Positions 1,795-48,201 of a stretch of DNA of 48,800 nt are shown here, in pieces. The position numbers were made by a program, and so were the translations under genes. This stretch comes from Streptomyces celluloflavus (GTDB lineage Bacteria > Actinomycetota > Actinomycetes > Streptomycetales > Streptomycetaceae). Position 1 is the first letter of the stretch, and the number at the start of each line of letters is the position of its first letter. The DNA is taken from assembly GCA_000720995.1 (NCBI GenBank), contig JOEL01000050.1, positions 1 through 48,800 on the forward strand. The letters are read 5' to 3'. A model generated the notes under the pieces. The model was given only the letters and a program-made list of their open reading frames with translations, made no database searches and was not told where the DNA came from.

Positions 1795-8265
<6,471 letters not shown>

Positions 8266-8455: not shown

Positions 8456-8842
8456 TCAGGCGGTGTGGGGGGCCTTGACGTTGGAGATCAGTTGGCTCTC
8501 CGCCTCGGCGTTCGCGACGTGCTGCTGCATCAGCGAGTGGGTGAAGTCCTCGCCGGCCTCGTGGTTCTCGGCCATGGTGGTCAGGGCGCCGCCGACCTCC
8601 TGGAGTTTGGCGGCTAGGTGGCCCATCGACTCGTACATGCCGTCGCGCAGCCCCTCGTAGACGACGCCGAACTTCTCGCCGATGTCGTCATCGCCCCACG
8701 GCGGGGTGTCCTTGCCTTCCAGCCCGGTCAGCGCGGCCTTCAGCTTGTCCACCGCGGACTGGTAGCGCTCACCGATGCCCGTGAAGTCCTTGCCGCCGGA
8801 CTTGAGTGACGGGATATCTGCTTTCAGGCCATCTCCGGCCAT
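8456..8842 (-). CDS. WXG100-family type VII secretion protein
   Basis: A 128-residue, mostly helical protein without a signal peptide. It starts at ATG 8842 behind GGGGGAAG. The turn between its two predicted helices holds a W-G element (PPWGDDDIGEKFG, around residues 48-60), typical of WXG100/ESAT-6-like proteins. The second helix ends in NHEAGEDFTHSLM. Such proteins form helical-hairpin dimers that are exported by, or escort substrates to, the EccC-type ATPase. The gene lies 190 nt upstream of the giant toxin on the same strand, so the toxin's N-terminal WXG100-like domain is its probable partner. It is longer than a minimal 100-residue ESAT-6. No T7SS machinery gene is in the window. Confidence 0.85.
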   Translation of the reverse strand: MAGDGLKADIPSLKSGGKDFTGIGERYQSAVDKLKAALTGLEGKDTPPWGDDDIGEKFGVVYEGLRDGMYESMGHLAAKLQEVGGALTTMAENHEAGEDFTHSLMQQHVANAEAESQLISNVKAPHTA

Positions 8843-23906: not shown

Positions 23907-23936
23907 GGGTGAGCGCGGTCCCGGTGCGGGCGGCCG

Positions 23937-25106
23937 CTAGAAGTGGTCGGGCAGCCAGGGCTCGAACTCTGCCGTGCTGCGGACGAGGGTCGCCAGAGCT
24001 TTCTCCGATACGGCGTGGACGCCGGCCATGCGGGCCGAGGTGGTGGACCGGTAGCCGCCGGCGTACCAGACCGCGAGCTGGCGCCGCGTGAAGGTCACCT
24101 GCCCCTCGACGTGGGTGGGGACGAAATCGGCCGTTCCGTCCTTGATCTGAAGCATCCACCGGCCCCAGTCGCCGGTCTCGTTCTTGATCTCCATCGGTAC
24201 GGCCGTGGTGAGGTCGTTGGGCCACCCGCGGAGCCGGATGGCCTCGGGGATGTCGAGCATGCGGAGCATCCAGGGGTGCCAGGCTTCAGCGGTTGCGCGG
24301 TAGTGGCGGAGTCCGTGGAGGAGGGTGGGGTAGGGCGGGAGGGCACCGCGCCGGAACTCGATCGTGTGGGCGCGGGTGTTGTGGCGGCCGAGGAAGGCGA
24401 GCATCGCGGCGGCGGTGGGCTGGCTGGCGGCCCAGAAGTCGTGGACGACCAGGCTCATGCCGTGGCGTTCGTGCCGTTTGGTGGTGTAACTGAGCAAGCC
24501 AGTGGTGGGGTGGCCGGGCCGGGCGAAGCGGTAGGTGGCGAGGTTGCTCTTGTCCTGCTTCCACCGGCTCCACCAGGTGGGCCGGTGGACGGGGCCGTTC
24601 CACTGGCGGGCGAGGTCGCGTTGGAGGGCTTCGGCTTCGCCGGTCAGTCCGTGCTCGGCCTCGAAGTCCTCACTGGCAAAGGAGCGTTTGAGGGCGTCGG
24701 TGGCCACCGCCCAGGCGAGGACGCCGGTGGGGGCCTCCCATCCGAGGCGGCGAGCGTAGCCGGTAGAGGAGGTCACGAGCGCGGAGATCACCGCTCCGCG
24801 CTCGATCAAGGGGCGCAGTCGTTCGGTGACCATGTCGGTGGCCAGGTGCTCGCCGCGTTCCTCGGGAGCCACGCAGCCGTCGCCGAGGCAGGCGCTGGGG
24901 ACGGGAGCGCCGCCGAAGAACTGGTCGACGAGGAGGCCGAGGCCGCCCGCGACGACCCGGCCGCCGCGGACGGCGACTTGGAGGTCGGCGTGCTCGCGCA
25001 GGTGGGTGATGTCGCCGACCGGGTGACCGTAGGCGCGGGTGGCGAGCTGCTCGTATTGCTCCCACAGGCAGTCATCGGCTGGGGCGAAGGTCAGTTGCTC
25101 ATTCAT
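23937..25106 (-). CDS. Eis-like GNAT N-acetyltransferase
   Basis: 389 residues from ATG 25106, a normal Eis length (about 400). It has an N-terminal GNAT region (VVAGGLGLLVDQFFGG, LGDGCVAPEERGEHLATDMV), a second GNAT-like region, and a C-terminal sterol-carrier-like fold. A Tyr in TSSTGYARRLGW matches the position of the Eis general-acid Tyr. The chain ends in Phe (WLPDHF), consistent with the terminal carboxylate that serves as base in Eis enzymes. Family members acetylate amines such as aminoglycosides, Lys or polyamines using acetyl-CoA. It is the last gene of the eight-gene operon, 9 nt after the MaoC stop, so it may acetylate the pathway product or give self-protection. That role is inferred. 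Confidence 0.88.
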   Translation of the reverse strand: MNEQLTFAPADDCLWEQYEQLATRAYGHPVGDITHLREHADLQVAVRGGRVVAGGLGLLVDQFFGGAPVPSACLGDGCVAPEERGEHLATDMVTERLRPLIERGAVISALVTSSTGYARRLGWEAPTGVLAWAVATDALKRSFASEDFEAEHGLTGEAEALQRDLARQWNGPVHRPTWWSRWKQDKSNLATYRFARPGHPTTGLLSYTTKRHERHGMSLVVHDFWAASQPTAAAMLAFLGRHNTRAHTIEFRRGALPPYPTLLHGLRHYRATAEAWHPWMLRMLDIPEAIRLRGWPNDLTTAVPMEIKNETGDWGRWMLQIKDGTADFVPTHVEGQVTFTRRQLAVWYAGGYRSTTSARMAGVHAVSEKALATLVRSTAEFEPWLPDHF

Positions 25107-25115
25107 GGTCCACCT

Positions 25116-25646
25116 TCAGTAGTGGGTGGCGTCGCGGGCGGCGTCGGCGTCCAAGGGGACGAGGAAGGTGCGAGCGAAGGTCAGGACGCTGATACCCGCC
25201 TGGTTGTGGGCGGTGGTGCGACAGGTGATGACCCCGGTGTCGGGACGGCTCTCAGAGGCCCGGCGGGTGAGGATCTTCGTCTCGGCGTACAGGGTGTCGC
25301 CGATGTGGACGGGCGCGGTGAAGCGCACGTGGTCGACGGCGAGGTTGGCGGTGGTCAGGCCGCTGACGCTGCGGACGGTCATACCGGCGACAAGGTTGAG
25401 GGTGACGCCGGAGCAGACCAGGATGCGGCCCCACGGGGTCTGGCTGCTGTAGTGGGCGTCGGTGTGGATGGGGGCGACGTTGCCGCTCAGGGCGGCGCCG
25501 AGGAGGTTGTCGAGTTCGGTGACGGTCCGGCCGGGCCGGTGCTCGATGACCAGGCCGGGGGCGAGTTCGGGGTAGGAGAGGCCGACGCTCTCTCGGATCC
25601 GGTCCTCGCCGGTCCGGCGATAGCCGTGGGGCAGGCCGGTGCTCAT
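25116..25646 (-). CDS. MaoC-like (hot-dog) hydratase/dehydratase
   Basis: 176 residues from ATG 25646; the ATGA overlap with the CitE-like stop couples them. The hot-dog hydratase motif reads SGNVAPIHTDAHYSS. The His is kept, but the Asp of the usual GDxNPxH motif is Asn. The following WGRILVCSGVTLNLVAGM and later DHVRFTAPVHIGDTLYAE fit mesaconyl/methylmalyl-CoA hydratase-type MaoC proteins, as I remember them. It probably adds or removes water at an acyl thioester made by its neighbours (a malyl-, citramalyl- or 3-hydroxyacyl-type substrate on CoA or ACP). In the operon it sits between the CitE-like and acetyltransferase genes. Confidence 0.85.
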   Translation of the reverse strand: MSTGLPHGYRRTGEDRIRESVGLSYPELAPGLVIEHRPGRTVTELDNLLGAALSGNVAPIHTDAHYSSQTPWGRILVCSGVTLNLVAGMTVRSVSGLTTANLAVDHVRFTAPVHIGDTLYAETKILTRRASESRPDTGVITCRTTAHNQAGISVLTFARTFLVPLDADAARDATHY

Positions 25647-26488
25647 GACGTACGGTCCGCTTCGGCGACGAGCGCGCGGGCGGCATTGAAGAAGGGGGTG
25701 CCGCGCATCTGTCCGTCCACGGTGGTCACTGTTCCGCCGCTGGCGTCGGCGGCTGCGGCGATGGCGCGGGCCTGGGCGATCTCCTCGGTGGTGGGCGTGA
25801 AGACGTCGTTGATCACCTTCACGTGGCGGGGGTGGACGCAGCCCTTGCCGTGGAAGCCGAGTTCCTTGGCCCGTTCGGCGTCGCGGCGCAGGATGCCAAG
25901 GTCGTCGAGTTCCCAGGTGGGGGCGTCGATCGCGGGGATGTTCGCGGCGGTGGCGGCGTTGATGAGGGCTGAGCGGGCGTAGTGGAGGGTGTCCCAGCCC
26001 AGGCCGCAGCGGACGGAGGCGGCGTAGTCGGCGGAGCCGAAGAGGACGCCTCCGAGCCGGGGCGCGCGCATGATCGCGGGGAGGGTGTCGAAGGCCCGGG
26101 GGCTTTCGATCAGCGCCCAGATGTCGGGGGTGTAGCCGTCGGCGTCGAGCGCGGCGGCGACGAGTTCGATGTCGCGGGGGGATTCCGTCTTGGGGACCAC
26201 GATGAGGTCGGGCCGGGCGGTGTAGGCGGCGAGGGCGACGAGGTCCTTGATGCCGTCGATCGTCGTGAGGCTGTTCATCCGGATGCCGAGGGTGCACGGC
26301 GGGTCGAGGAGGGCGAAGAACGCCTCCGAGGCGGTGCGGACGGTCTGCTTGTCGGGGAGGGCAACGGAGTCCTCGATGTCGACGACGGCGACTGCGGCGC
26401 CGGACTTCTGTGCGTTGACGAAGCGGTCCCTGTGCAGGCCAGGGGTGATGATCCAGGCCCGTCCGGGCCGACGGCTGGTGCTGGTCAT
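25643..26488 (-). CDS. CitE-like CoA/ACP-ester lyase (HpcH/HpaI superfamily)
   Basis: 281 residues from ATG 26488; an alternative GTG at 26500 overlaps the ACP stop as GTGA but has its GGAAG directly against it. This TIM barrel shows CitE features in order: ITPGLHRDRF, VAVVDIEDSVALPDKQ (metal-site Glu/Asp), RMNS, VVPKTESPRDI, WALIESPRAFD, LFGSADYAASV (metal Asp), GCVHPRHV. Relatives cleave or form malyl-, citramalyl- or methylmalyl-CoA from acyl-CoA plus glyoxylate or pyruvate. No citrate lyase alpha or gamma subunit is near, so it works as a stand-alone lyase. Paired with MaoC it recalls methylmalyl-CoA/mesaconyl-CoA chemistry; the neighbouring ACP may be the carrier. The substrate is inferred. 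Confidence 0.87.
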   Translation of the reverse strand: MTSTSRRPGRAWIITPGLHRDRFVNAQKSGAAVAVVDIEDSVALPDKQTVRTASEAFFALLDPPCTLGIRMNSLTTIDGIKDLVALAAYTARPDLIVVPKTESPRDIELVAAALDADGYTPDIWALIESPRAFDTLPAIMRAPRLGGVLFGSADYAASVRCGLGWDTLHYARSALINAATAANIPAIDAPTWELDDLGILRRDAERAKELGFHGKGCVHPRHVKVINDVFTPTTEEIAQARAIAAAADASGGTVTTVDGQMRGTPFFNAARALVAEADRTS

Positions 26489-26496
26489 AGGGGTGG

Positions 26497-26727
26497 TCAC
26501 CTTCCGCTGCGCTTGCTGGTGATGAGGAGATCGAGCTGGCCGAGGGTGGCGGCGTCCTTGATGTCGCTGTCGCTGATGTCGATGCCGTAGCGGTCGGCCA
26601 GGAGGACGGACAGTTCGACGACGACCAGGGAGTCGAATCCGGCGTGGTCAAGGCTGGCGTCGTCGGTGAGCCGGTCGGCAGGCAGCTTGAGGTCGTCGGT
26701 CAGGATGCGGACGAGATCACCGGTCAT
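26497..26727 (-). CDS. Free acyl carrier protein
   Basis: 76 residues from ATG 26727, preceded by AAGGAG that lies within the end of the KAS III gene (11-nt overlap). A four-helix ACP sequence with the phosphopantetheine Ser33 in GFDSLVVVEL, preceded by acidic LTDDASLDH and followed by helix III DSDIKDAATLGQL. It is too small for anything else and lacks neighbouring PKS or NRPS modules. A discrete ACP next to KAS III indicates carrier-bound acyl chemistry separate from housekeeping fatty-acid synthesis. It would need a phosphopantetheinyl transferase encoded elsewhere. The CitE-like and MaoC-like genes downstream may act on its acyl cargo. Confidence 0.92.
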   Translation of the reverse strand: MTGDLVRILTDDLKLPADRLTDDASLDHAGFDSLVVVELSVLLADRYGIDISDSDIKDAATLGQLDLLITSKRSGR

Positions 26728-27724
26728 GCCCGGCTCCTTCCGGGAGGCAGGTGGGGGAGAGGCCGGGCCAGGTGAGGGTGGTGGCACCCCAGGTCAGTCC
26801 GGCGCCGAACGCGGTGAGCAGGGTGCGGTGTCCGGGCTCCAAGCGGCCGTCGGCGGCAGAGCGGGCCAGGAGCAGGGGGAGGGACGCGGCGCCGGTGTTT
26901 CCGACATCACCCACGTTGCCGAGCCGACGGTCGTCGGGGATACCGAGTTGTCGGGCGACGAACGAGGTGATGCGGCTGTTGGCCTGGTGCGGGATCAGAC
27001 GGTCGATGTCCGTGACGTTCCACCCGGCGGCGCCGGCAGCTTGGCGGGAGGCGGTGGACATGCGGTCGACCGCATGCCGGAAGACCTCGGCTCCGTCCAT
27101 GTACAGGGCGCCGGGGCGGGGGGCCCGGATCAGGTCGGCGCCGGTGCCGTCGCTGCCCAGCACCACCGGCCCGAGCGCCCCGGCCTCGTCCGCGCCGCCG
27201 CGGCGCAGCACCACGGCTCCGGCGCCGTCACCGAACAGCGGGACGGTCGTGCGGTCCTCGGGGTCGGGAAGGGTAGCGAGGCGGTCGGCGCCGACGACCA
27301 GGACGGCCTGTGCGGTGTCGGCGGCGATGAGCCCGGCCGCAGTGGCGAGGGCGTAGAGGAATCCGGTGCAGCCGGCCGCGAGGTCGTGGGCGGGGACGCC
27401 GGTCAGCCCGAGCCGGGTGGCCACGGCGGGGGCGGTGGCCGGGCAGCAGCGGTCCGGGGTGGTCGTCGCCACCACCACGGCCTCCACCGTGACCGGTTCA
27501 CCGTCGGCGAGGGCCTGGGCCGCCGCATGGACGGCGAGGTCGGTCGTGGACAGGTCCACCCCGGCGACGTGCCGTTGGGTGATGCCGGTCCGCGAGCGGA
27601 TCCACTCGTCCGTAGTGTCCAGACGTGCGGTCAGGTCGGCGTTGGTCACGATGTGCGGGGGCAACGCCGCGCCGACTCCACAGACCACAGCCGCCCTCCC
27701 GGCAACTTCGGATGCGGCGGTCAT
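26717..27724 (-). CDS. 3-oxoacyl-ACP synthase III (FabH-like)
   Basis: 335 residues from ATG 27724, overlapping the aldolase stop as ATGA. The FabH catalytic triad is intact: Cys119 in [11 protein letters not shown], His246 in IPHQANSRI, Asn in [10 protein letters not shown]-like sequence ([10 protein letters not shown]). The fold landmarks [12 protein letters not shown] and [12 protein letters not shown] are present. KAS III enzymes condense an acyl-CoA starter with a malonyl-type ACP extender; some instead catalyse acyl transfer to ACP or esterification. The ACP gene follows with an 11-nt overlap, so the pair acts together. In this operon the starter could be acetyl-CoA or a C5 unit made by the three upstream enzymes. 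That is inference. Confidence 0.93.
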
Positions 27725-28746
27725 CGGATGGCCGCCTTCAGCTCCCGGGCGACGTCACCGATCAGGTCTTCCTGCCCGGCGACGACCTGCCGCTCGCCAA
27801 GGGCGAGCAACAGGTCGACGGGGTCGACGCCTTCGGCACGGGCGATCTGCTGGACAGGCCGCTTGAAGCCGGAGAACACCCCGGCGAGCCCGCTGGCCAC
27901 GGCGATCGAGTCGATGGACGGCGGGGCCTTCATCAGGCGGTCGGTGGCGATGTCGGCGGCGGCCAGGACCTCGCGCAGGCCGATACCGGTCTCGATGCCA
28001 CGGCGTTCGAGAACGGCCACGAGGACTTCGACCTGGGTGTTGCCCGCCCCGGCGCCGAACCCGCGGGCGGTCGCGTCGATGACGGACGCCCCGGCGTCCA
28101 CGGCGGCAAGGCTGTTCGCCACAGCCAGGCCCAGGTTGTTGTGGCCGTGGAAGATGACCGGCACGTCGACGGCGTCGGCGATGGCGCGCACCCGTTCAGT
28201 GACGTCGGCCGGGAGGAAGTGGCCCGCGGAGTCCATGATGCCGACGGCCTGGGCGCCGAACGCCGCCATCAGGGCGCACTGTTCTGCGAGATGGCCGGGG
28301 CCGGTCATGTGGCTCATGAGCAGGACGCCCTGGGCTTCGGCACCGAGGTCGCGGACAACGCCGAGGTGGCGTTCGGTGACGTCGGCCTCGGTGCAGTGCG
28401 CGGCGATCCGTACGACGTCGGCGCCGTGGTGGACGGCGGCCACCAGGTCGTGGGAGGTGCCCCAGCCGGGGGCCATGAAGACGCCCATCCTTGATGAGGT
28501 GAGGGCCTCGCGGACGGTGGTGAGCATCGTGGCGTCGTCGAGCCGGGCACGGCCGATCTGAAGGCTGGAGGCGCCCAGTCCGTTGCCGTGGCCTACCTCC
28601 ACCACGGGCACTTTGGCGGCGTTCGCGGCGGTGGCGTAGGCGCGGAGCTGGCCGACGTCGAGTTGGTGGCCGACCGCGTGGTGTCCGTCGCGCAGGGTCG
28701 GGTCGTGCAGGAGGATCCGAGGCCGCTTGCACGGGTGTGTGTCCAT
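27721..28746 (-). CDS. 4-hydroxy-2-oxovalerate aldolase
   Basis: 341 residues from ATG 28746 (AAGGGA upstream); ATG 28764 in the same frame overlaps the dehydrogenase stop as ATGA and is an alternative. The DmpG/MhpE barrel motifs are clear: [17 protein letters not shown] (metal-binding Asp and catalytic His region), [17 protein letters not shown], and [15 protein letters not shown] with the two metal His. The C-terminal DmpG communication domain continues to ELKAAIR. The family enzyme splits 4-hydroxy-2-oxovalerate to pyruvate and acetaldehyde, or joins them, and channels acetaldehyde to the partner dehydrogenase encoded just upstream. Symbols mhpE/dmpG apply to degradation operons; here the direction is uncertain. 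Confidence 0.93.
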
Positions 28747-28760
28747 GGACGGGGTTCCCT

Positions 28761-29630
28761 TCATCGTGAGGTGACGGCCGACTGCTCGGCAAGCAGGACT
28801 GCGGCGGCGTTGATGATGTGGACGCTTCCGGTGTGGCGGGGCAGGCGACCGCCCAAGGCGGTTACCTCCACCACGACCGAGATCCGACCCGGGGTCACGG
28901 CGAGCGAGGTCACCGCGTACCCGGGCGCGTAGGCGCGCACGGCCTGGGCGGCAGCCGCGATGCTCGTGCGGACCGGTGCGGGGCGGATGCCGTCCGCGAG
29001 GACGGTCATGGCCACCCGGAATGGCGGGGCGGGGCGGGCGGGGCTGAGGTTGACCATCACCTTCGCGTCCGGGGCGGCGGTGAAGGTCCGGATCGCGGCG
29101 GAGGTGGTGGCGATGTACTGGTCAAGGTTCAGACGGGTGGCCCGGCCGGCGCTCGCGCTCGCCCCGGTGGAGACCACCTCGATGTAGGTGGGGGTACAGC
29201 GCTGGGCGATGGCGTGCAGGACCGGAATGGCCGCCTGCCCGCCGCAGCTGACGAGGTTCAGGTGCCGGTGGGCCGTCGACCGGTAGCTGTTGACGCCTGG
29301 GACGATGACCGTGCCGAGTCCCGTGGGGGTCAGGTCGATCAGCGTGGTACCGGTAGGTTGCAGCGCTGCCCAGTGCTCGGCGTGGCTGTCGGCGTTGGTG
29401 GCGTCGAAGACCGCGTCGAAGGGGCCGCCCTCCACCACGGCGCGAATCCCGCCGTGGGAGGTCGGGTGGCCCATGTCGGCCGACCGGCGCAGCCCCAGGC
29501 TGTCGCGGTCGCGGCCTGCCACCAGGGCCAGTTCCAGCTTCGCCGACCGGCGGATCTTGTCGGCGAGGTCGATCCCGATCAGGCCCGCGCCGAGTACGGC
29601 GACACGCAGACGCTGTTCATCAGCAGCCAT
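28761..29630 (-). CDS. Acetaldehyde dehydrogenase (acylating)
   Basis: 289 residues from ATG 29630 with AAGGAG 7 nt upstream. A Rossmann NAD site begins the protein ([17 protein letters not shown]), followed by [10 protein letters not shown]. The catalytic Cys129 lies in [12 protein letters not shown], the signature of DmpF/MhpF enzymes. It interconverts acetaldehyde and acetyl-CoA with NAD+ and normally forms a channelled complex with the aldolase, whose gene starts at or just after its stop. Run in reverse it would supply acetaldehyde from acetyl-CoA for a biosynthetic aldol step. Slightly shorter than typical (about 300-315). Confidence 0.93.
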
Positions 29631-29703
29631 CGGCCGCTCCTTCGTTCAAGGGGAGGGGTGGTGCACGAGGGTGCGGCGCCGGGCCGGCCTCGGGCTCCGT
29701 GGA

Positions 29704-30495
29704 TCAGCGCACGTGCAGCTCGACCGGCGGCAGATGCGGCGAGCGGGCGCGTACTGTGCTCCGGGCTTCCAGAGGGAGGCTGGCGTGCACGGCCCCGGCC
29801 AGGACCAGCTGCCCGGCACGCAGGCCGTCGCCGCAGCGGTGGAGCCGTCCGGCGAGCCAGACCAGGGCACGGAGCGGGTCCCCGAGGACGGCACGGCCCG
29901 CTCCGGTGACCACCGCGGTTCCGTCGACGCTGACGACCAGCGGCTCGGCGGCCAGGTCCATCTCAGCGCTCAGCGGTACCATGGACCCGGTGACGACCCG
30001 AGCGCACGAGGCGTTGTCGGCGATGCTGTCCGCGACCGTGATCTGCCAACTGGTGAACCGAGTGTCGATCACCTCCAGAGCGAGGAACACTTCCTTCACC
30101 GCCGCCCGTGCCTCGTCCTCGCTCACGTTCGGGCCTGCCAGATCACAGCCGAGCCGGAAAGCGATCTCGGCTTCTACCCGCGGCTGCATCAGCACCGACC
30201 GGGCCACGGCACTGCCGGTAGGCAGCACCCTGTCGTCCAGCAGAACGCCCCAGTCCGGCTCGCCGACGCCCATCTGCTCCTGCATGGCCTTGGAGGTCAC
30301 CCCGGCCTTGTGGCCGACGACGCGGGCGCCTCCCGCGATCCGCCGGGCGACCGTCGCCTTCTGCACCCGGTACGCCGTCGCCAGGGGCAGGCCCGGCCGC
30401 CGGGCGGTCAGCGCCTCGATCGGCACCTGCTCGTACTCCGCCGCCAGCAGAGCCGACGCCGAAGCGGCGATCCAGCGATCCTCCTGGTCGTCCAT
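29704..30495 (-). CDS. 2-oxopent-4-enoate hydratase (MhpD/DmpE family)
   Basis: 263 residues from ATG 30495 with GGAGGG close upstream. It belongs to the fumarylacetoacetase-like superfamily. Markers include GHKAGVTSKAMQEQMGVGEP, DWGVLLDDRVLP, and the metal-site Glu pair in QPRVEAEIAFRLG, followed by LALEVIDTRF. The usual reaction hydrates 2-hydroxypenta-2,4-dienoate to 4-hydroxy-2-oxovalerate, the substrate of the aldolase two genes on. It is the first gene of the operon, 73 nt before the dehydrogenase, and divergent from the TPR regulator. No extradiol dioxygenase or hydrolase that would feed a meta-cleavage route is present in the window. Confidence 0.92.
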   Translation of the reverse strand: MDDQEDRWIAASASALLAAEYEQVPIEALTARRPGLPLATAYRVQKATVARRIAGGARVVGHKAGVTSKAMQEQMGVGEPDWGVLLDDRVLPTGSAVARSVLMQPRVEAEIAFRLGCDLAGPNVSEDEARAAVKEVFLALEVIDTRFTSWQITVADSIADNASCARVVTGSMVPLSAEMDLAAEPLVVSVDGTAVVTGAGRAVLGDPLRALVWLAGRLHRCGDGLRAGQLVLAGAVHASLPLEARSTVRARSPHLPPVELHVR

Positions 30496-30684
30496 GGCGA
30501 TCCCTCCTCAGGGCATGGGGCATCACATGCGGTTCGCGGATGTGGGCACAGAAGCGGATCCGGGGGTGTCACCGGTACCGGCCGCCGGGATCTGGCCTGA
30601 TGAAGAGTCAACCGGCGCTCGCCGCACAGCGGTACGGTGTCGGGCAGGCCAAGCGGTATATCGCGTATATCCGGACAGGTGCTC
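30496..30684. promoter_or_regulatory. Divergent promoter region of the eight-gene operon and its regulator
   Basis: 189 nt between the hydratase ATG and the regulator ATG. Near the regulator are an AT-rich core (TATATCGCGTATATCC, about 30657-30672) and two GCGGTA copies about 23 nt apart (in CAGCGGTACGG and AAGCGGTATAT). These are plausible operator or -10 material. I could not pick a firm -35/-10 pair. Confidence 0.45.
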
Positions 30685-32058
30685 ATGACCACCCGCATGC
30701 CGAACATCCAGCTCAGCGCCCTTGTCGCCGAGTCCGGCCTCACCTACGAGGCACTGGCCAAGGCGGTCTGCGCGGTCGCCGCCGAATGCGGCGACCGCTT
30801 ACGCACGAACAAGTCCGACGTCGAGCACTGGCTCAGCGGATCCGTTCCCCGAGGCGACACACCCCGCTACCTCGCCCTCGCGCTCTCTCGGCGCCTCGGC
30901 CGCCTCCTGGCCCCCGCAGACCTCGGCCTGCCCTCCCCGGCAGAGTTCGACGATGACACCATCGGACTGTCCCTCGGGAGAGACCCGCTGGACACCCTGC
31001 TGCCGATGTGGAGGTACGAGTTGGACCGCCGCCGCTTCCTGACGGCCTCCGCCTACTCCGTGGCAGCCGCTGCCCTGCCCCTCAGCCACCTCCAGGACAT
31101 CGCCTCCCGCACCCAGGCCGCCCGCACCGGCCACCTTGTCGGCATGGCCGAGGTCACCGCCGTCCGTGACCTGATCCACGCGTTTTCCGAGATGGACGAA
31201 CGCCATGGCGGACAACACGGCCGCAGCGCCCTGGTCACCTACCTCCGCGATGACGTCGCCCCGCTGTGCCGGGCCCGGTTCCGCACCGACGAAGCCCGTC
31301 GGCAGATGCTTTCCGCCGCCGGCCGAGGCGTCCACCTGCTGGGCTGGAAGAGCTACGACGCAGGTCAGCAGGGACTCGCCCAGCGCTACTACCTCCAGTC
31401 CTACGCCCTGGCCGCCGAATCCGGCCTGCGCGGGCACGACGGATTCGTGATGCGCACGATGGCCATGCAGGGCCTCAAGCTCCACCGTCCCGAGCACTGC
31501 CTGGGCCTGGCCGAGACCGGCCTGAACCGCGCCAAGGGGCGGGTCGATGCCCAGACCGAAGCCCTCTTCCGTGTCGTCCATGCCCACACCCTGGCCAAGA
31601 GCGGCAAGCACCGCGCGGCCCTCGCCGAGGCCGAGCACGCCCGCACCCTGCTGACCGCTGCTCCCGGCGACGAGGTGCCGTTCTGGGCGCTGGCCTGGGG
31701 CCCGCCGGCCGCGTCGGTGTACTCCCGCACAGCCAAGGTCCACGAGACTCTGGGAGATCACCGGGCCGCTGCCGAGCAGTACGCGCTGGCTGCCACGGCC
31801 CGCCCGGCGGACACCTTCGCGCGGATCGTCGCCCTGGACCTGGTCGCGGGCGCCGAGATGCACCTCAAGCGCGGCAGCATCGAGCAGGCGTGCGCCACCT
31901 GGCACCGGGCCATCGACCACATGGGAGGTGTCCGCTCCGTCCGTACCCGCAACGCAGTCTCCCGCATGCGCGGCGACCTCACACGCTTCCGGGCCCGTGG
32001 CCTGCGGTGCGTGGCCGAACTCGACGAACGGGGACGCGACTTCCTCTCCGGCGTCTGA
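30685..32058 (+). CDS. TPR-type transcriptional regulator with a TTA (bldA) codon
   Basis: 457 residues from ATG 30685 (ATG 30697 is an alternative). The N-terminal 70 residues look like a degenerate XRE-like HTH (LTYEALAKAVCAVAAEC, TNKSDVEHWLSGSVPRG, YLALALSRRLGR). The rest is helical, with TPR-like repeats such as GQQGLAQRYYLQSYALAAES, HRAALAEAEHARTLL and DHRAAAEQYALAATARP. This architecture is common in Streptomyces next to accessory gene clusters. Codon 39 (30799-30801) is TTA, read only by the bldA tRNA, so full-length protein should appear late in growth. It is divergent from the hydratase operon and is its likely regulator. Confidence 0.8.
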   Translation: MTTRMPNIQLSALVAESGLTYEALAKAVCAVAAECGDRLRTNKSDVEHWLSGSVPRGDTPRYLALALSRRLGRLLAPADLGLPSPAEFDDDTIGLSLGRDPLDTLLPMWRYELDRRRFLTASAYSVAAAALPLSHLQDIASRTQAARTGHLVGMAEVTAVRDLIHAFSEMDERHGGQHGRSALVTYLRDDVAPLCRARFRTDEARRQMLSAAGRGVHLLGWKSYDAGQQGLAQRYYLQSYALAAESGLRGHDGFVMRTMAMQGLKLHRPEHCLGLAETGLNRAKGRVDAQTEALFRVVHAHTLAKSGKHRAALAEAEHARTLLTAAPGDEVPFWALAWGPPAASVYSRTAKVHETLGDHRAAAEQYALAATARPADTFARIVALDLVAGAEMHLKRGSIEQACATWHRAIDHMGGVRSVRTRNAVSRMRGDLTRFRARGLRCVAELDERGRDFLSGV

Positions 32059-32060
32059 CC

Positions 32061-32801
32061 TCAGCGGCACCCGGAGAAGCAGCGGACGATCGGCTCCAGG
32101 TAATCCGCGTGCGGACCGGCCAGAGCGGCCAGTTCGTCCGGTGAGTGCACCAGGGCGATGCCGTCGAGTTCAGGTTCGCGGCCCTGGGCGCGCTCGGCTG
32201 CCGCGGCAGCGGTGAAGTCCGCGCGGAGCGCTGCCTCGGGAAGGGCCGGGGCGAGGTAGGTCAGGCCGACACTGCCGTTCTCGCCGCGGGTGACCACCCA
32301 CAGCTTCAGGCCCTCGGGGGCCACGCCGGTACCCAACTCCTCGGCCAGCTCCCGCGCGGCTTGGCCGGCCAGTGCCGACTCGTCCAGCACCGCCCCGCTC
32401 TGGGGAGGTTCCAGGGACCCCCCTGGCAGCTGCCAGCGACCCGGGGCGGCCGTAGCGGGCGACATCCTCGCCACCAGCACACGGCCGTCGTCGGTCGGCT
32501 GGACGACGTTCACGAACAACGAGGGCAGTGCGGTGGCGCCGGGAACGCGACGCAAGGCGTAGTGCCGGTAGGTCACACGCACCCACGACAGACGCAGGAC
32601 GCGCGGGCCAGTCCACTCCACACCCCCACACGCCACCACAGGCCCGTCGAAGAGGGTGGGGTTGGCCCGCACCGCCATGTCCCACACCCGGTCCCGGGCC
32701 TCAGCATCCCGGGGCGGCAGCGGCGGCTCCGCAGCTTCGTCCAGCAGGAGCCGTTCAACCTCGAAGAGGTCAATGCCCACCGGGGGCAGCGTCTCGGTCA
32801 C
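32061..32801 (-). CDS. NUDIX hydrolase
   Basis: 246 residues from GTG 32801. The Nudix box is at about residues 123-156: LPGGSLEPPQ, a short insert, DESALAGQAARELAEELG. It retains the RE..EE.G core that binds Mg2+ and cuts nucleoside-diphosphate-linked substrates. The N-terminal 95 residues (FEVERLLLDEAAE, VACGGVEWTGPRVLRLSWVRV) form an extra domain that I do not recognise. The substrate is not evident. It converges on the TPR regulator, whose stop is 2 nt away, so the two are probably part of the same accessory block. Confidence 0.85.
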   Translation of the reverse strand: MTETLPPVGIDLFEVERLLLDEAAEPPLPPRDAEARDRVWDMAVRANPTLFDGPVVACGGVEWTGPRVLRLSWVRVTYRHYALRRVPGATALPSLFVNVVQPTDDGRVLVARMSPATAAPGRWQLPGGSLEPPQSGAVLDESALAGQAARELAEELGTGVAPEGLKLWVVTRGENGSVGLTYLAPALPEAALRADFTAAAAAERAQGREPELDGIALVHSPDELAALAGPHADYLEPIVRCFSGCR

Positions 32802-32867
32802 TGGCCCATCTTAGAACCCGCTCCAGGCTTGACCGCCAACTTCGCATCCATGGCCGTGCAGGTGAGT

Positions 32868-32960
32868 TCATGGACGCCCGGCTGGCTGCTGTTCGTCGGT
32901 GTCCGCTGGTGTTCGGGGGCCCGGCACGGTGACCGCAGCCAGGTTCAGGCGGGTATCCAT
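32868..32960 (-). CDS. Doubtful 30-residue peptide ORF
   Basis: In the 319-nt gap between the NUDIX and kinase genes (32802-33120), a minus-strand frame from ATG 32960 (AAGGTG 9 nt upstream) encodes [20 protein letters not shown] then [10 protein letters not shown]. The same frame continues upstream through [10 protein letters not shown] without a stop. The peptide is Pro/Thr/Asp-rich and Cys-free. It might be a small modified-peptide precursor or simply a chance frame. I see nothing else convincing in this gap. Confidence 0.2.
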
Positions 32961-33120
32961 GTCGAGGTTCACCTTCCCGTACGGTCGGACGTGGGACCAG
33001 AACAGCGGGGTCAGGCCGCGCCGGTCGGCGGGGCGAGATGGCCCTCGGCCTGCGGGCCATCGCGCGCGGCCTGGAGTCCACCACCTGACGCGGGAGCGTC
33101 GCCCCCACCGAAAGGAAGCG

Positions 33121-38023: not shown

Positions 38024-38938
38024 CTAGGCGGTCGTTGACGCGATGGTGTCGAGGAGGTGTTGGAGACGGTCGCGGCCCGCGGCCAGCAGGGCGGGGAGTT
38101 CGGCCGCCCCCGGGTACCAGCGCTTTTCGTACTCCCAGCACAGCCAGTCGTCGGACGCCCGGCCGTCCGTCCGGCCGCCGCAGTACCTCCCCGCCCGGCC
38201 GAGGGCGGCGAGGGCGGCGGCGAGCGGCAGGGCGCCGGTGCCGAGCGGGAGCGGGGTGGTGTCCTCGGCCGAGGCGACGTCCTTGACCTGGACATATCCC
38301 AGATACGGGGCGAGCGCGGTCTGTGTGTCGGCGGGCCGTTCGCCGCCGAGCCAGCTGTGCAGTACGTCCCAGAGCGCGCCGATGCCGTGGTGGCCCACCG
38401 CGCCCAGGACGCGGGCGGCGGCGGCCCCCGTACGGTGCGAGTCGTGGGTCTCCAGCAGGACGCGGACACCCCGTTCGGCGGCGAGCGGCGCCAGCGCGGC
38501 GAGGCGGCGGACGGCATCCGCCTCCGCCGCCTCCGCCGGGCGGTCACCACCGCCGGGGAACACCCGTACGAAGGGTGCCCCCAGGTCGGCGGCGAGCAGC
38601 ACCAGCCCGTTCAGCTCGTGTGCCAGCGCCGCCTCACCCGCCGCGTCCAGGGCGGCGGCGACCTTGGCGTATCCGGCCACCGCCAGGATGTCGATACCGG
38701 CGTCCGCGAACTGCCCGCGCACCGCGGCCCGTTCACGCGTACCGGTCCCGAGGTGCACCGGCTCCTCCGGATGGGCGCGCAGCTCCACCCCCTGATATCC
38801 GGTATCGGTGGCGAGCCGCAGCACCTCGGGCACCGGCATCCCGGGCACTCCGAGGGTCGAGAACGCGAACCGCACCGCCGCGCTTCTGGTGCCGCCCGCC
38901 GCGTCCCCGGCGGTTTCGTTCGCGGCGTCTCCGATCAC
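38024..38938 (-). CDS. Sugar phosphate isomerase/epimerase-like TIM barrel
   Basis: 304 residues from GTG 38938, chosen because AAGGAGAAGG lies just upstream; the open frame continues to 39010. The xylose-isomerase-like (AP endonuclease 2) barrel shows FAFSTLGVPGMPVPEVL, GYQGVELRAH, RVLLETHDSHRTG (metal Glu), IGALWDVLHSWLGG (Asp/His) and VQVKDV, and ends with CWEYEKRWYPG. Relatives isomerise or epimerise sugars and cyclitols such as inosose. It is transcribed in the same direction as the LacI gene 307 nt upstream and lies near the oxidoreductase operon that also contains an isomerase-like protein. A shared cyclitol or sugar pathway is plausible. Confidence 0.85.
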   Translation of the reverse strand: MIGDAANETAGDAAGGTRSAAVRFAFSTLGVPGMPVPEVLRLATDTGYQGVELRAHPEEPVHLGTGTRERAAVRGQFADAGIDILAVAGYAKVAAALDAAGEAALAHELNGLVLLAADLGAPFVRVFPGGGDRPAEAAEADAVRRLAALAPLAAERGVRVLLETHDSHRTGAAAARVLGAVGHHGIGALWDVLHSWLGGERPADTQTALAPYLGYVQVKDVASAEDTTPLPLGTGALPLAAALAALGRAGRYCGGRTDGRASDDWLCWEYEKRWYPGAAELPALLAAGRDRLQHLLDTIASTTA

Positions 38939-39245
38939 GGGCCTTCTCCTTGGTTCTCTCGTCGGTTCACCTATCGGGCTGCTTGCCGGTTCTCTCCGGG
39001 CTTTCGCCACGGCGGTGTCGCCACCGACCGTACGGCCCCCGCCGTCACAGGATCAGCCGTCGGCCCCGGCCGATGAGGTCCTGGCCGAAGCTGTGGCGCG
39101 GCGCCTGCCGACCTGCTCGAATCCGGCGTGCTGACGGCTGCTCCCGGCCGCGCCCGGCACGGAACCGGTCCACAGTGCCGGCCCGGGAAATCCGGCAGAG
39201 TTGGCGAATTCCGCGGCGGTGAGTTGGCGCCCCACGCCGTGCCGG
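38939..39245. other. Gap between LacI and isomerase genes
   Basis: 307 nt. Short frames exist on both strands but show no family features or good ribosome sites. No LacI-type GAAAGCGCTTTC box was found here, so the isomerase may have its own promoter or read through from the LacI gene. Confidence 0.4.
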
Positions 39246-40415
39246 TCAAGGGCAGGGAACGGACGTGGACGCGCGCACGATCAACTCGGCGCGCAGCGTG
39301 GCCAGTCCGCCCGGCGGCCGTTCCTCGCGCCCCATCGCCAGCCGGCCGGCCCGCGCACCGGTCTCCTGGAGCGGCAGCCGGACGGTCGTCAGCGCGGGCG
39401 TGGCGTCCACACTGAACGGCAGATCGTCGAAGCCCGCGACGGACACGTCCTCGGGGATGCGCAGTCCGCGGTCGCGCACCGCCGCGCAGACGCCCAGCGC
39501 GGCGGTGTCGTTGGCCGCCACGATCGCGGTCAGACCTGCTTCCCTGCGCAGGAGTTCCGCGGCGGCGTCGTAGCCGGAGGCGCGGTCGTAGGCGCCGTGC
39601 ACGGTACGCCGCGGGGTGTCCTCGATGCCGTACGCGGCGAGGGCGGCGCGATGGCCCGCCAGGCGCTCGCCGGTGGTGGTGCGGCCGGCCGGCCCCGCGA
39701 CACAGCCGATACGGCGGTGGCCGAGACCGATGAGGTGGGCGGTCAACTGCCGTGCGCCGCCCCGGTTGTCGAACGCGAGCGTGGTGAGCGCGGTGAGCGG
39801 GACCCGGGGCGGGGCCTCGTCCGCCTCCGGGGTCTTTCCCGCCCCTCGGGCCTTCCCCGGCTCCCGGGTCTCTTCCGCCCCCTGGCTCTCGCCCGGTACC
39901 GCTCCCGTCGCCTCCGCCGCGGCCGCCACTCCCGTCGGCCGCCCGCACAGCACCACCCGGGTGCCCGCCTCCGCCAGCCGCGCCAGGGTGGCGGTCAGTG
40001 CCCGTGCATGGGCGGCGTCCTCCGAGGCGCTGCCGGTCAGGATGACCGCGGCCGCCCGCTGCCGCTGCAACAGGGTGAGATAGGTCAGTTCGCGCTCGGG
40101 GGAGCCGCCCGTGTTGCACACCACGGCGAGCTTCTCGCCTCCTTGTGCCGCGCCGCTCAGCTCCGTCTGCACGGCACCGGCGATGATCCCGAAGAACGGG
40201 TCGGCGATGTCGTTGACCAGGATGCCGACCAGGTCGGAGCTGGCGGCGGCGAGCGCGCTGGCCGGGCCGTTGACGACGTAGGCCAACTCCTCGACGGCGC
40301 GCAGCACCCGGCCGCGGGTGCCCGCGGCCACCGGGTAGTTGCCGCTGAGCACCCGTGAGACCGTCGCCGCCGAGACGCGCGCCCGCGCCGCCACATCCGC
40401 CAGCGTCACCGCCAT
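39246..40415 (-). CDS. LacI-family transcriptional regulator
   Basis: 389 residues from ATG 40415 with GGGGAGG upstream. The LacI HTH and hinge are at residues 1-55: VTLADVAARARVSAATVSRV, LSGNYPVAAGTRGRVL, AVEELAYVVNG. The periplasmic-binding-like core follows (DLVGILVNDIADPFFG, TTLAFDNRGGARQLTAHLIG, AAYGIEDTPRRTV, SVAGFDDLPFSVDATPALTT). A Glu/Gly/Lys-rich insert of about 35 residues (around 185-220) separates the two lobes and is unusual in length. It is divergent from the oxidoreductase operon across 363 nt, which contain a LacI-type operator. It probably represses that operon and responds to a sugar or cyclitol derivative. Confidence 0.93.
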   Translation of the reverse strand: MAVTLADVAARARVSAATVSRVLSGNYPVAAGTRGRVLRAVEELAYVVNGPASALAAASSDLVGILVNDIADPFFGIIAGAVQTELSGAAQGGEKLAVVCNTGGSPERELTYLTLLQRQRAAAVILTGSASEDAAHARALTATLARLAEAGTRVVLCGRPTGVAAAAEATGAVPGESQGAEETREPGKARGAGKTPEADEAPPRVPLTALTTLAFDNRGGARQLTAHLIGLGHRRIGCVAGPAGRTTTGERLAGHRAALAAYGIEDTPRRTVHGAYDRASGYDAAAELLRREAGLTAIVAANDTAALGVCAAVRDRGLRIPEDVSVAGFDDLPFSVDATPALTTVRLPLQETGARAGRLAMGREERPPGGLATLRAELIVRASTSVPCP

Positions 40416-40623
40416 CGCGGCCTCCCCGTGCTCCTCGTGCTTCTGGTGTTCCTCATGCTCCCCGAACTCCCCATAGGGCCCATCCTCCCCGTATGTTCCG
40501 CGCGTTCCGTGCGCACTGCGTCTGCTGTGTGATCCGTTGGGCCGGTGTGGTTCATGCGGTGCACGCGGTCCGGGTTTCCCGCACTTTTATCCCCCGGGCA
40601 CCGGGCTTTCCACGCCCCGCCTC

Positions 40624-40653
40624 TTGTCCGTGTCCCGCACCGCAGGTTAGCTT
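40624..40653 (+). promoter_or_regulatory. Promoter of the oxidoreductase operon
   Basis: TTGTCC (40624-40629) and TAGCTT (40648-40653) are separated by 18 bp, a good HrdB-type fit. Transcription would begin near 40660, about 120 nt upstream of the GTG. It lies in the 363-nt gap 40416-40778, in which I see no gene. Confidence 0.6.
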
Positions 40654-40664
40654 CTCTCGCGATA

Positions 40665-40676
40665 GAAAGCGCTTAC
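40665..40676. promoter_or_regulatory. LacI-family operator
   Basis: GAAAGCGCTTAC has a central AAGCGCTT palindrome (40667-40674) with flanking G/C symmetry broken at one base pair. It matches the GAAAGCGCTTTC-like boxes of many LacI regulators. It sits just downstream of the predicted transcription start of the oxidoreductase operon, a repressing position. The LacI gene is divergent from that operon. Confidence 0.75.
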
Positions 40677-40778
40677 TGAATCTGCCTTCGCATGCCCCCT
40701 GCGGGCACCCGCACCGCCATCCGCACCCGCATCGAACGGACTGACCTGCCGTCAGTGCCGAGTGAGAGAGGCCGGGCC

Positions 40779-41930
40779 GTGACACGCACGACCGTACGCA
40801 TCGCCATGAACGGCGTGACCGGACGCATGGGATACCGCCAGCATCTGGTCCGCTCCCTGCTCGCCCTGCGGGAACAGGGCGGCCTCGACCTGGGCGACGG
40901 GACGGTGATCTGGCCGGAACCGGTCCTCGTCGGCCGCTCCGCGCACAAGCTCCGGACGCTGGCCGAACGGCACGGTCTGGAGCACTGGAGCACCGACCTC
41001 GACACCGTGCTCGGCGACGACGGCATCGACATCTACTTCGACGCACAGGTCACCGCCGCCCGCGAGGAGGCCGTGCAGAAAGCGATTGCCGCCGGGAAGC
41101 ATCTGTACGTCGAGAAGCCGACCGCCACCGGGCTGGCCGGTGCGCTGGAGCTGGCCCGGTCGGCCAGGGACGCCGGCATCAAACACGGCGTCGTCCAGGA
41201 CAAGCTCTTCCTGCCCGGTCTGCGCAAGCTCCGCCGCCTGGTGGAGGGCGGGTTCTTCGGCCGCATCCTGTCCGTACGGAGCGAGTTCGGCTACTGGGTC
41301 TTCGAGGGCGACTGGCAGGAGGCGCAGCGCCCCTCGTGGAACTACCGCGCCGAGGACGGCGGCGGTATCGCGGCCGATATGTTCCCGCACTGGGAGTATG
41401 TGCTGCACGAGCTGTTCGGACCGGTCAAGACCGTCCAGGCGCAGGTCACCACGCATATCCCGCGCCGCTGGGACGAGTCGGGCACACCGTACGACGCCAC
41501 CGCCGACGACGCCGCGTACGGCATCTTCGAGCTGGCGGGCGGTATCGTCGCGCAGCTCAACTCCTCCTGGGCGGTGCGGGTGCACCGCGACGAACTGGTG
41601 GAGTTCCAGGTGGACGGCACCGAGGGATCGGCCGTCGCCGGACTGCGCGGCTGCCGGGTCCAGCACCGCTCCAGCACCCCCAAACCCGTCTGGAACCCGG
41701 ATATTCCGGCGAGTGAGCGGTTCCGCGAGCAGTGGCAGGAAGTCCCCGACAACGCCGAGTTCGACAACGGCTTCAAGGCGCAGTGGGAGCTGTTCCTGCG
41801 GCATGTCGTCCGCGACGAACCCTGGCGCTGGGACCTGATGGCGGGCGCCCGCGGTGTCCAACTGGCCGAACTGGGGCTGCGGTCGTCGGCCGAGGGACGC
41901 CGCCTGGACGTGCCGGAGCTGACGCTGTGA
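40779..41930 (+). CDS. Gfo/Idh/MocA-family NAD(P)-dependent oxidoreductase
   Basis: 383 residues from GTG 40779; the frame is open further left, but the promoter and operator lie only 100-150 nt upstream, and VTRTTVRIAMNGVTGRMG is the expected Rossmann start. The family motif EKP is in HLYVEKPTATGLAGALELA. The C-terminal domain contains LFLPGLRKLRRLVEGGFFGR, SWNYRAEDGGGIAADMFPHW (active-site Asp and His) and LNSSWAVRVHRDEL. Relatives oxidise sugars, cyclitols or their acids. It is the first gene of a three-gene operon whose next start overlaps its stop (GTGA). Confidence 0.92.
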   Translation: MTRTTVRIAMNGVTGRMGYRQHLVRSLLALREQGGLDLGDGTVIWPEPVLVGRSAHKLRTLAERHGLEHWSTDLDTVLGDDGIDIYFDAQVTAAREEAVQKAIAAGKHLYVEKPTATGLAGALELARSARDAGIKHGVVQDKLFLPGLRKLRRLVEGGFFGRILSVRSEFGYWVFEGDWQEAQRPSWNYRAEDGGGIAADMFPHWEYVLHELFGPVKTVQAQVTTHIPRRWDESGTPYDATADDAAYGIFELAGGIVAQLNSSWAVRVHRDELVEFQVDGTEGSAVAGLRGCRVQHRSSTPKPVWNPDIPASERFREQWQEVPDNAEFDNGFKAQWELFLRHVVRDEPWRWDLMAGARGVQLAELGLRSSAEGRRLDVPELTL

Positions 41931-48156: not shown

Positions 48157-48201
48157 GCGCCCCGCCTCCAGATCCCCCCACGGGTCCGGAGTGCGGGGCG
48201 C
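48157..48201. terminator. Second GC-rich stem downstream of citrate synthase
   Basis: GCGCCCCGC (48157-48165) pairs with GCGGGGCGC (48193-48201), continued by CTCC against GGAG. It may terminate the copper ATPase transcript coming from the right, although it is about 340 nt past that stop, or be a structured RNA element. Confidence 0.5.

What the first reader, a model, noticed from the sequence alone, without database searches (positions are those of the whole stretch)
23937..30495. Eight-gene operon joining lower meta-cleavage enzymes to KAS III/ACP, CitE and MaoC: a candidate new biosynthetic system
The operon encodes hydratase, acylating acetaldehyde dehydrogenase and hydroxy-oxovalerate aldolase, normally the end of aromatic meta-cleavage. 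Here they are fused by ATGA-type overlaps to KAS III, a free ACP, a CitE-like lyase, a MaoC-like hydratase and an Eis-like acetyltransferase. No extradiol dioxygenase, ring hydroxylase or hydrolase is in the window. Run in reverse, the first three could turn acetyl-CoA and pyruvate into 4-hydroxy-2-oxovalerate and 2-oxopent-4-enoate. A C5 unit of this kind, or acetyl units on ACP, could then be elongated by KAS III and CitE and dehydrated by MaoC. I know no characterised pathway with this set. Enzyme identities are seen from motifs; direction and product are inference.
Basis: partly seen in the sequence, partly recalled or inferred. Interest (0 to 1): 0.88.

Follow-up and report, generated by a model that had tools for sequence, protein, structure and literature searches.

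The report
Mobile streptomycete acyl-assembly gene cassette
A compact ten-gene cassette found on Streptomyces plasmids and chromosomes appears to use enzymes best known from breaking down aromatic compounds to build a small, still unidentified molecule, and its aldolase carries in nature a change that chemists once engineered to let such an enzyme accept larger substrates.

Summary
The eight genes are real, but the conserved unit is larger: a ten-gene cassette, window 23937-32801, that adds a divergent NsdA-family regulator and a NUDIX gene. DNA similarity to 16 of 16 relatives compared stays inside about 23926-33050. Relatives lie on linear and circular Streptomyces plasmids and on contigs of 7.5 and 8.0 Mb.

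The aldolase belongs to a 70-row clade (100/98) apart from the strain's own meta-cleavage set. This cassette type has a small residue in place of DmpG Leu90 in 24 of 25 rows (Ala or Gly in 21, and in no other of 112 rows); in BphI that change admits longer aldehydes. Clade members sit in four gene contexts: this one, ketomemicin-like, LnmK/aminotransferase and enediyne-like. KAS III is missing in 7 of 25 cassette rows; CitE-MaoC-GNAT also occurs alone once.

Best reading: acyl thioester -> aldehyde -> (+ pyruvate) 4-hydroxy-2-oxo acid -> 2-oxo-enoate -> (CitE, acetyl-CoA) malyl-type thioester -> (MaoC) 3-carboxy-enoyl thioester -> (GNAT) product. Gene content and residues support it; no reaction or product is shown. 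I found no description in print.

The parts
29704..30495 (-). hyd: 2-oxopent-4-enoate hydratase/decarboxylase-like protein (FAH family), proposed to dehydrate the 4-hydroxy-2-oxo acid
   Evidence: Pfam FAA_hydrolase above cut-off; best NCBIfam DmpE 199.8 bits, below its 408.8 cut-off; K63, E108, E110, E141 invariant with MhpD over 25 sequences
28761..29630 (-). adh: acylating aldehyde dehydrogenase (DmpF family), catalytic Cys129
   Evidence: (PRK08300 above cut-off, TIGR03215 below)
27721..28764 (-). ald: class II pyruvate aldolase (DmpG family) with communication domain; Phe96, Ala98 and Phe297 in place of DmpG Leu88, Leu90, Tyr291
   Evidence: TIGR03217 above cut-off
26717..27724 (-). kas: KAS III, Cys119-His246-Asn276 triad intact
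   Evidence: TIGR00747 above cut-off; triad in 31 of 31 rows; positions
26497..26727 (-). acp: free acyl carrier protein, Ser33
   Evidence: PF00550 above cut-off; DSL motif
25643..26500 (-). cit: CitE/RipC-like citramalyl-CoA lyase-type enzyme, proposed to condense an alpha-keto acid with acetyl-CoA
   Evidence: RipC_Ccl best NCBIfam, 215.5 bits against a cut-off of 375; best PDB 3qll; R74, E132, D158 invariant over 50 sequences
25116..25646 (-). mao: MaoC-fold dehydratase with Asn56/His61, as in beta-methylmalyl-CoA dehydratases
   Evidence: RipB_Ich best NCBIfam, 166.5 bits against 340; best PDB 8hgn; Asn-His in 24 of 24 A-type and 24 of 24 B-type relatives and in the second domain of 8hgn and 4e3e, Asp-His in 4ffu
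23937..25106 (-). gnat: Eis-like acyl/acetyltransferase (two GNAT domains plus SCP2-like domain), C-terminal Phe
   Evidence: three Pfam domains above cut-off; best PDB 2ozg, Eis 3r1k at 1.5e-8; C-terminal Phe in 22 of 26
30685..32058 (+). divergent NsdA-family TPR regulator, part of the cassette
   Evidence: NF053720 381.5 bits, cut-off 75; 78-93% identical in 9 relatives; inside the conserved span
30648..30670 (-). candidate operator: near-palindrome ATATACGCGATATAC followed by CGCTTGGC
   Evidence: present in 14 of 15 aligned NsdA-bearing relatives (the 15th, L076, diverged) and in none of 12 relatives with another or no NsdA gene in place; single match in the own genome with up to 3 mismatches
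30594..30613 (-). conserved GGTTGACTCTTCATCAGGCC box upstream of hyd, possible -35 region or second operator half
   Evidence: GGTTGACT in 15 of 15 aligned relatives; position; no sigma-70 match by the simple scan
32061..32801 (-). NUDIX-domain gene, part of the cassette, role unknown
   Evidence: PF00293 above cut-off; inside the conserved span in 14 of 16

Best explanation
The cassette makes a small acyl product by a biosynthetic use of the meta-cleavage end enzymes. (1) A short acyl thioester, on the dedicated ACP where KAS III is present and otherwise on CoA, is reduced to the aldehyde by adh (inferred). (2) ald adds pyruvate to give a 4-hydroxy-2-oxo acid; the enlarged pocket points to an aldehyde longer than acetaldehyde (family and residues shown, reaction inferred). 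(3) hyd removes water to give a 2-oxo-enoic acid (inferred; family shown). (4) cit joins this alpha-keto acid to acetyl-CoA or malonyl-CoA, giving a citramalyl-type 3-hydroxy-3-carboxyacyl thioester (inferred from RipC/KtmA precedent). (5) mao dehydrates it to a 3-carboxy-2-enoyl thioester (inferred; Asn-His pair shown). (6) gnat transfers this acyl, or acetyl, to an amine (inferred). The NsdA-type protein probably controls the operon through the palindrome between the two promoters (inferred).
For: Clade of 70 aldolase rows apart from the own meta-cleavage paralogue, whose locus holds 3-HAO, an amidohydrolase and an aldehyde dehydrogenase. Gene contexts of 69 clade loci: A 17, A without KAS III 7, B (AONS-CitE-adh-ald-OCD, 25, MaoC seen in 24) 25, C (hyd-adh-ald with aminotransferase) 12, of which 10 with LnmK and 2 with KAS III, D (adh-ald-KAS III-ACP-SDR-aminotransferase) 6, plus 2 with adh-ald only. 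LnmK makes propionyl-ACP (PMC9396626, passages), so two unlike acyl-ACP makers stand next to the same adh-ald pair. Leu90 equivalent small in 24 of 25 A-type rows, Ala/Gly in no other of 112 rows; BphI L89A takes butanal to hexanal much better (PMC3962088, passages). Catalytic residues of all enzymes kept. CitE-MaoC-GNAT without adh/ald in L160 shows a separable second half.
Against: No product, assay or expression data. Phe at DmpG Tyr291 and Arg at AcDH position 40 are not marks of this clade: the other 26-row outside group has them too (25 of 26 each), so only the 16-row meta-cleavage group differs. D-type clusters have KAS III but keep Leu or Phe at the pocket position, so pocket size does not track KAS III. 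No reductase that would turn a beta-ketoacyl-ACP into a saturated acyl-ACP is in the cassette. NCBIfam scores of hyd, cit and mao lie well below the equivalog cut-offs, so substrates may differ. No amine donor gene is present to explain gnat. The ketomemicin comparison is by gene content only; ktm sequences were not compared.
Confidence: 0.5

Rival explanations
1. Catabolic cassette: it degrades a branched unsaturated acid through RipB/RipC-like and meta-cleavage-like steps, both ending in pyruvate and acetyl-CoA.
For: Both halves, hyd-ald-adh and mao-cit, run downhill to pyruvate and acetyl-CoA in their best-known relatives; plasmid location suits a catabolic island.
Against: No CoA transferase or ring-cleavage gene named in 7 of 7 annotated type-A plasmid regions (incomplete gene table); KAS III and ACP in 18 of 25 rows have no catabolic role; related adh-ald pairs lie in aminotransferase, AONS, LnmK and enediyne-like contexts; the strain has a separate meta-cleavage set.
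Confidence: 0.12
2. One reading: pyruvate and acetyl-CoA give 2-oxopent-4-enoate, which KAS III and CitE then elongate on ACP and MaoC dehydrates.
For: Gene families are as stated; KAS III keeps the condensing triad.
Against: KAS III is lost or absent in 7 of 25 rows and ACP in 5, so neither can be the common elongation step; RipC-like CitE uses CoA thioesters and an alpha-keto acid, not malonyl-ACP elongation; the aldolase pocket suggests an aldehyde larger than acetaldehyde.
Confidence: 0.12
3. The cassette makes a diffusible signal that its own NsdA-type regulator senses, rather than an antibiotic or building block.
For: Compact unit with one divergent regulator, an operator-like palindrome found once in the genome, sharp ends, small predicted product, no transporter inside the cassette.
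Against: NsdA is not a known receptor; the predicted structure is of low confidence (mean pLDDT 58.5); half of the relatives lack this regulator in place.
Confidence: 0.16
4. The Eis-like gene is a separate drug-modifying passenger, and the other genes make an unrelated product.
For: Eis-type fold; one truncated copy stands alone in L158.
Against: It ends the operon in all 25 type-A loci and stays with CitE-MaoC where adh-ald is missing (L160).
Confidence: 0.1

Closest known systems
Ketomemicin (ktm) pseudopeptide clusters
   Same: Aldolase (ktmA) and dehydratase (ktmC) act on an alpha-keto acid-derived thioester; type B relatives of the window's adh-ald pair sit beside AONS, CitE, OCD and MaoC genes (PMC11943689, passages and introduction).
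   Different: The window has no PLP acyltransferase, OCD, ATP-grasp or amidinotransferase gene; it has hyd, KAS III, ACP and GNAT. CitE is only 33% identical (median) to the type B CitE. ktm sequences themselves were not compared.
Lower meta-cleavage enzymes DmpEFG / BphHIJ
   Same: Same three families, same gene neighbours, catalytic residues kept, communication domain present.
   Different: Separate clade; aldolase pocket changed at positions 88, 90, 139 and 291; no ring-cleavage genes found nearby.
Itaconate degradation RipB/RipC (Ich/Ccl)
   Same: Best NCBIfam hits of mao and cit; best PDB hit of cit is 3qll.
   Different: Scores 166.5 of 340 and 215.5 of 375 needed; about 36% identity of cit to 3qll; no CoA transferase in the cassette.
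Nikkomycin NikA/NikB (recalled, no call supports it)
   Same: An acylating aldehyde dehydrogenase and a 4-hydroxy-2-oxovalerate-type aldolase used to make a 4-hydroxy-2-oxo acid.
   Different: Other substrates and setting; one paper search for it found nothing and no sequence was compared.
Enediyne-like plasmid clusters with adh-ald-KAS III-ACP (NBC_00726, NBC_00887)
   Same: Same four-gene order adh-ald-KAS III-ACP.
   Different: No hyd, CitE, MaoC or GNAT; SDR and aminotransferase instead. 'Enediyne-like' rests on neighbour names and recall.

Membership tests
Meta-cleavage (dmp/bph) lower pathway | hydratase, acylating dehydrogenase and aldolase of the three families | tested here: met
Meta-cleavage (dmp/bph) lower pathway | linked ring-cleavage dioxygenase, hydrolase or decarboxylase | tested here: not met
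   none among 22 window ORFs nor named in 7 annotated plasmid regions; gene tables incomplete, a dienelactone hydrolase family gene in L040 and a VOC family gene in L042 lie several kb away
Meta-cleavage (dmp/bph) lower pathway | aldolase grouping with the strain's own meta-cleavage aldolase | tested here: not met
Ketomemicin-type (ktm) cluster | CitE-type aldolase and MaoC-type dehydratase | tested here: met
   families only
Ketomemicin-type (ktm) cluster | PLP-dependent C-acyltransferase, OCD-type dehydrogenase, ATP-grasp ligase | tested here: not met
   no hits to AONS or OCD references in type A loci; the 'ATPg?' reference had no Pfam hit and is a guess
Itaconate degradation (rip/ict-ich-ccl) | RipB and RipC above curated cut-offs | tested here: not met
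   166.5 of 340 and 215.5 of 375 bits
Itaconate degradation (rip/ict-ich-ccl) | itaconate CoA transferase in the cluster | tested here: not met
   all ten cassette genes identified, none is one
De novo fatty acid synthesis FabH/ACP | KAS III with Cys-His-Asn triad and ACP Ser motif | tested here: met
De novo fatty acid synthesis FabH/ACP | housekeeping gene, not a separate clade | tested here: inconclusive
   A-type KAS III is one clade (100/97) but only two other KAS III of the own genome served as comparison
Eis acetyltransferases | GNAT-GNAT-SCP2 domain order | tested here: met
Eis acetyltransferases | acetylation of aminoglycosides or other amines | not testable with these tools
   needs an assay

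The most novel reading that the evidence does not exclude
A carrier-protein-fed aldol pathway: a DmpF-type acylating dehydrogenase takes an acyl group from a dedicated ACP (loaded by KAS III here, by LnmK in sister clusters), passes the aldehyde through the tunnel to a class II pyruvate aldolase naturally shaped for longer chains, and a CitE-MaoC pair builds a branched carboxylated enoyl thioester that an Eis-like enzyme attaches to an amine. The product is made by a plasmid-borne, self-regulated cassette and may be a signal.
Probability: 0.3. Interest if true: 0.78.

Novelty: new variant of a known kind. Interest (0 to 1): 0.6.

Why it matters
It shows that the aldolase/acylating dehydrogenase pair known from aromatic catabolism is a recurrent biosynthetic module in actinomycetes, placed in four gene contexts. 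It gives a concrete case in which a natural aldolase carries the pocket change that was engineered in BphI, so chain-length preference and stereochemistry can be tested directly. The cassette is small, discrete and present in a model strain (S. venezuelae NRRL B-65442 plasmid), so its product is within reach. The exchange of KAS III for LnmK beside the same pair makes the question whether acylating aldehyde dehydrogenases of this family accept acyl-ACP testable.

Tried and rejected
Considered and rejected: an aromatic-degradation operon (no ring-cleavage genes found; separate own set); an itaconate-degradation operon (scores below cut-off, no CoA transferase); cispentacin-type ACP (AmcB hit 33.2 of 80 bits); KAS III as a defining part (missing in 7 of 25 rows).

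My own over-reading, mended: which compared the 70 clade rows with one chosen group of 13 meta-cleavage rows, I took Phe at DmpG Tyr291 and, Arg at AcDH position 40 as marks of the biosynthetic clade and of NADPH use. One search added the remaining tree rows: 25 of 26 rows of the other outside group have Phe and 25 of 26 have Arg. I dropped both as clade marks and make no cofactor claim. The Leu90 change survived the check.

Led nowhere: a structure model of the regulator (mean pLDDT 58.5; no fold search done); promoter and terminator scan (no promoter, one chance-level terminator); Rfam (nothing in the cassette); searches for NikB and for the S. venezuelae locus tags found no papers. Paper searches for this gene set; the library lacks most subscription journals, and MIBiG was not available, so 'not described' is limited to these.

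In one search, 16 of 392 genus genomes have the GNAT at E 1e-60 or better: 7 with the full order including the window's own, 4 without KAS III, and 5 partial (G228 lacks hyd and has a shortened adh; G238 has only CitE-MaoC-GNAT; G314 a shortened GNAT alone; G261 and G008 end at contig ends).


Full report
What is there. Five of seven junctions overlap; two have gaps of 73 and 9 bases.

The unit is larger than reported. Blastn of the window against 16 relatives gives matches that stay within 23926-33050, so the divergent NsdA-family regulator and the NUDIX gene belong to a ten-gene cassette with sharp ends. GC content inside and outside is alike (0.714 and 0.721). Relatives are on linear plasmids (L039, L041, L042, L043, L045, L145), a circular plasmid (L040) and on contigs of 7.5 Mb (L046) and 8.0 Mb (L149). 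In the plasmid collection 279 records match the dehydrogenase; of the 15 listed, 12 are of this type or its close relatives by identity or inspection, 7 of which I inspected. In the genus, 14 of 199 genomes have a dehydrogenase at 47% identity or more, 5 of them of this cassette type, and 16 of 392 have the GNAT. The host is a streptomycete by inference from its relatives; the window is a whole contig (C50).

A control region. Between the regulator and hyd lies a near-palindrome, ATATACGCGATATAC, followed by CGCTTGGC (30670-30648), and a GGTTGACT box (30613-30594). The palindrome is found in 14 of 15 aligned relatives that have this regulator and in none of 12 that do not have it in place; the box is in 15 of 15. 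The palindrome with its flank occurs once in the 8.68 Mb genome with up to three mismatches, none for the backward control. I infer a dedicated operator. It lies upstream of ATG 30685, which is therefore the likelier start of the regulator.

Not the catabolic set. The genome has another set on contig C33 (L148) with 3-hydroxyanthranilate dioxygenase, an amidohydrolase and an aldehyde dehydrogenase, a canonical meta-cleavage neighbourhood. In an aldolase tree of 112 distinct rows the cassette type forms one clade of 25 rows (100/95) inside a clade of 70 rows (100/98); the own meta-cleavage aldolase lies in another group of 16 rows (root by midpoint only).

Four contexts. For 69 clade loci the neighbours were named by tblastn with reference proteins: type A, this cassette, 17 plus the window; type A without KAS III, 7, of which two keep an ACP; type B, AONS-CitE-adh-ald-OCD with MaoC in 24 of 25, in Streptomyces and other actinomycetes and in Xenorhabdus and Serratia; type C, hyd-adh-ald with an aminotransferase in 11 of 12, LnmK in 10 and KAS III in 2; type D, adh-ald-KAS III-ACP-SDR-aminotransferase in 6, plus two loci with adh-ald only. 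Pfam supports LnmK, the aminotransferase, OCD and CitE in representatives. Type B has the ktmA, ktmB, ktmC and ktmF kinds of gene (PMC11943689, passages and introduction read); the resemblance is of gene content.

What the swaps suggest. LnmK loads methylmalonyl on an ACP and decarboxylates it to propionyl-ACP (PMC9396626, passages). That it and KAS III both stand with an ACP beside the same adh-ald pair suggests that they feed an acyl-ACP to the dehydrogenase. This is inference. Where KAS III and ACP are missing, an acyl-CoA would serve. L075, without both, groups with two KAS III-bearing rows (100/94, long branches), so a loss is likely. One genome (L160) has CitE-MaoC-GNAT without hyd, adh or ald, which suggests a separable second half.

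Residues. In the aldolase the equivalents of DmpG Leu88, Leu90 and Tyr291 (BphI Leu87, Leu89, Tyr290) are Phe96, Ala98 and Phe297. A small residue at the second is found in 24 of 25 type-A rows (Ala 19, Gly 2, Val 3, Leu 1); Ala or Gly occurs in none of the other 87 rows, Val in two of them. BphI L89A has far higher specificity for butanal, pentanal and hexanal; Y290F loses stereocontrol, and with L87W or L87N it prefers the 4R form (PMC3962088, passages). So the cassette's aldolase should accept longer aldehydes, and perhaps make the 4R product. Against a wider claim: Phe at position 291 is also found in 25 of 26 rows of another outside group, as is Arg at dehydrogenase position 40, so these two separate only the 16-row meta-cleavage group. 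Type D rows have KAS III but keep Leu or Phe at the pocket position, so the pocket does not follow KAS III.

Second half. CitE keeps R74, E132 and D158 over 50 sequences including 3qll; MaoC has the Asn-His pair seen in beta-methylmalyl-CoA dehydratase (8hgn) and 4e3e, against Asp-His in 4ffu. In itaconate degradation the RipB/RipC type of pair interconverts itaconyl-CoA, citramalyl-CoA and acetyl-CoA plus pyruvate (PMC12290011, passages). I infer that cit joins the 2-oxo acid from ald/hyd to acetyl-CoA or malonyl-CoA and that mao dehydrates the result. The GNAT ends in Phe in 22 of 26; that Eis uses its C-terminal carboxylate as base is recalled.

How sure. That the cassette is biosynthetic: about 0.85. 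That the order of steps is as given: about 0.5. That acyl-ACP feeds the dehydrogenase: about 0.3-0.35. The product is unknown. Paper searches showed no description of this gene set; MIBiG and most subscription journals could not be searched. The chemistry uses known enzyme kinds in a new combination, so I rate it a new variant of a known kind.

Noticed in passing
L087, L089, L101 and 22 actinomycete loci: A ketomemicin-like gene set that also carries adh-ald occurs in actinomycetes and in Xenorhabdus and Serratia; the aldolases form one supported clade, pointing to transfer between phyla.
   Followed up: partly
L049, L050, L052, L078, L079, L080, L083, L092, L094, L096: Clusters joining hyd-adh-ald, an ACP and LnmK, nine of the ten also with a HisC-like aminotransferase: a likely route from propionyl-ACP to an unusual amino acid.
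   Followed up: partly
L044 and L146 (plasmids NBC_00726, NBC_00887): adh-ald-KAS III-ACP inside clusters with a type I PKS, two DUF1702 genes and NRPS genes that look enediyne-like.
   Followed up: no
L160, 9696-12487: CitE-MaoC-GNAT without adh-ald, beside other enzyme genes that I did not scan with Pfam.
   Followed up: no
L155 and L158: Decaying copies near contig ends: L155 lacks hyd, has a shortened adh and a stop in the GNAT; L158 keeps only a shortened GNAT.
   Followed up: partly
L043, L072, L073: A PIG-L type deacetylase gene lies just upstream of hyd in this subgroup, and the NUDIX gene has moved to the other end.
   Followed up: no
L042 and L065: Kitasatospora aureofaciens strains hold either a close copy of the cassette (87% dehydrogenase identity) or a diverged copy without KAS III on a plasmid (59%).
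   Followed up: no
window 1795-8265: A 2156-residue minus-strand ORF with a small ORF (8456-8842) beside it, of the look of a large secreted or toxin-like protein; not scanned.
   Followed up: no
window 38024-44025: Sugar or inositol-like catabolic genes: two AP_endonuc_2 proteins, a GFO_IDH_MocA oxidoreductase, a LacI regulator and DUF993.
   Followed up: no
window 48185-48247: Rfam match to the Streptomyces sRNA Scr2736, 72.2 bits.
   Followed up: no
G000:C33:31000-50000 (L148): The strain's canonical 3-hydroxyanthranilate meta-cleavage neighbourhood.
   Followed up: yes
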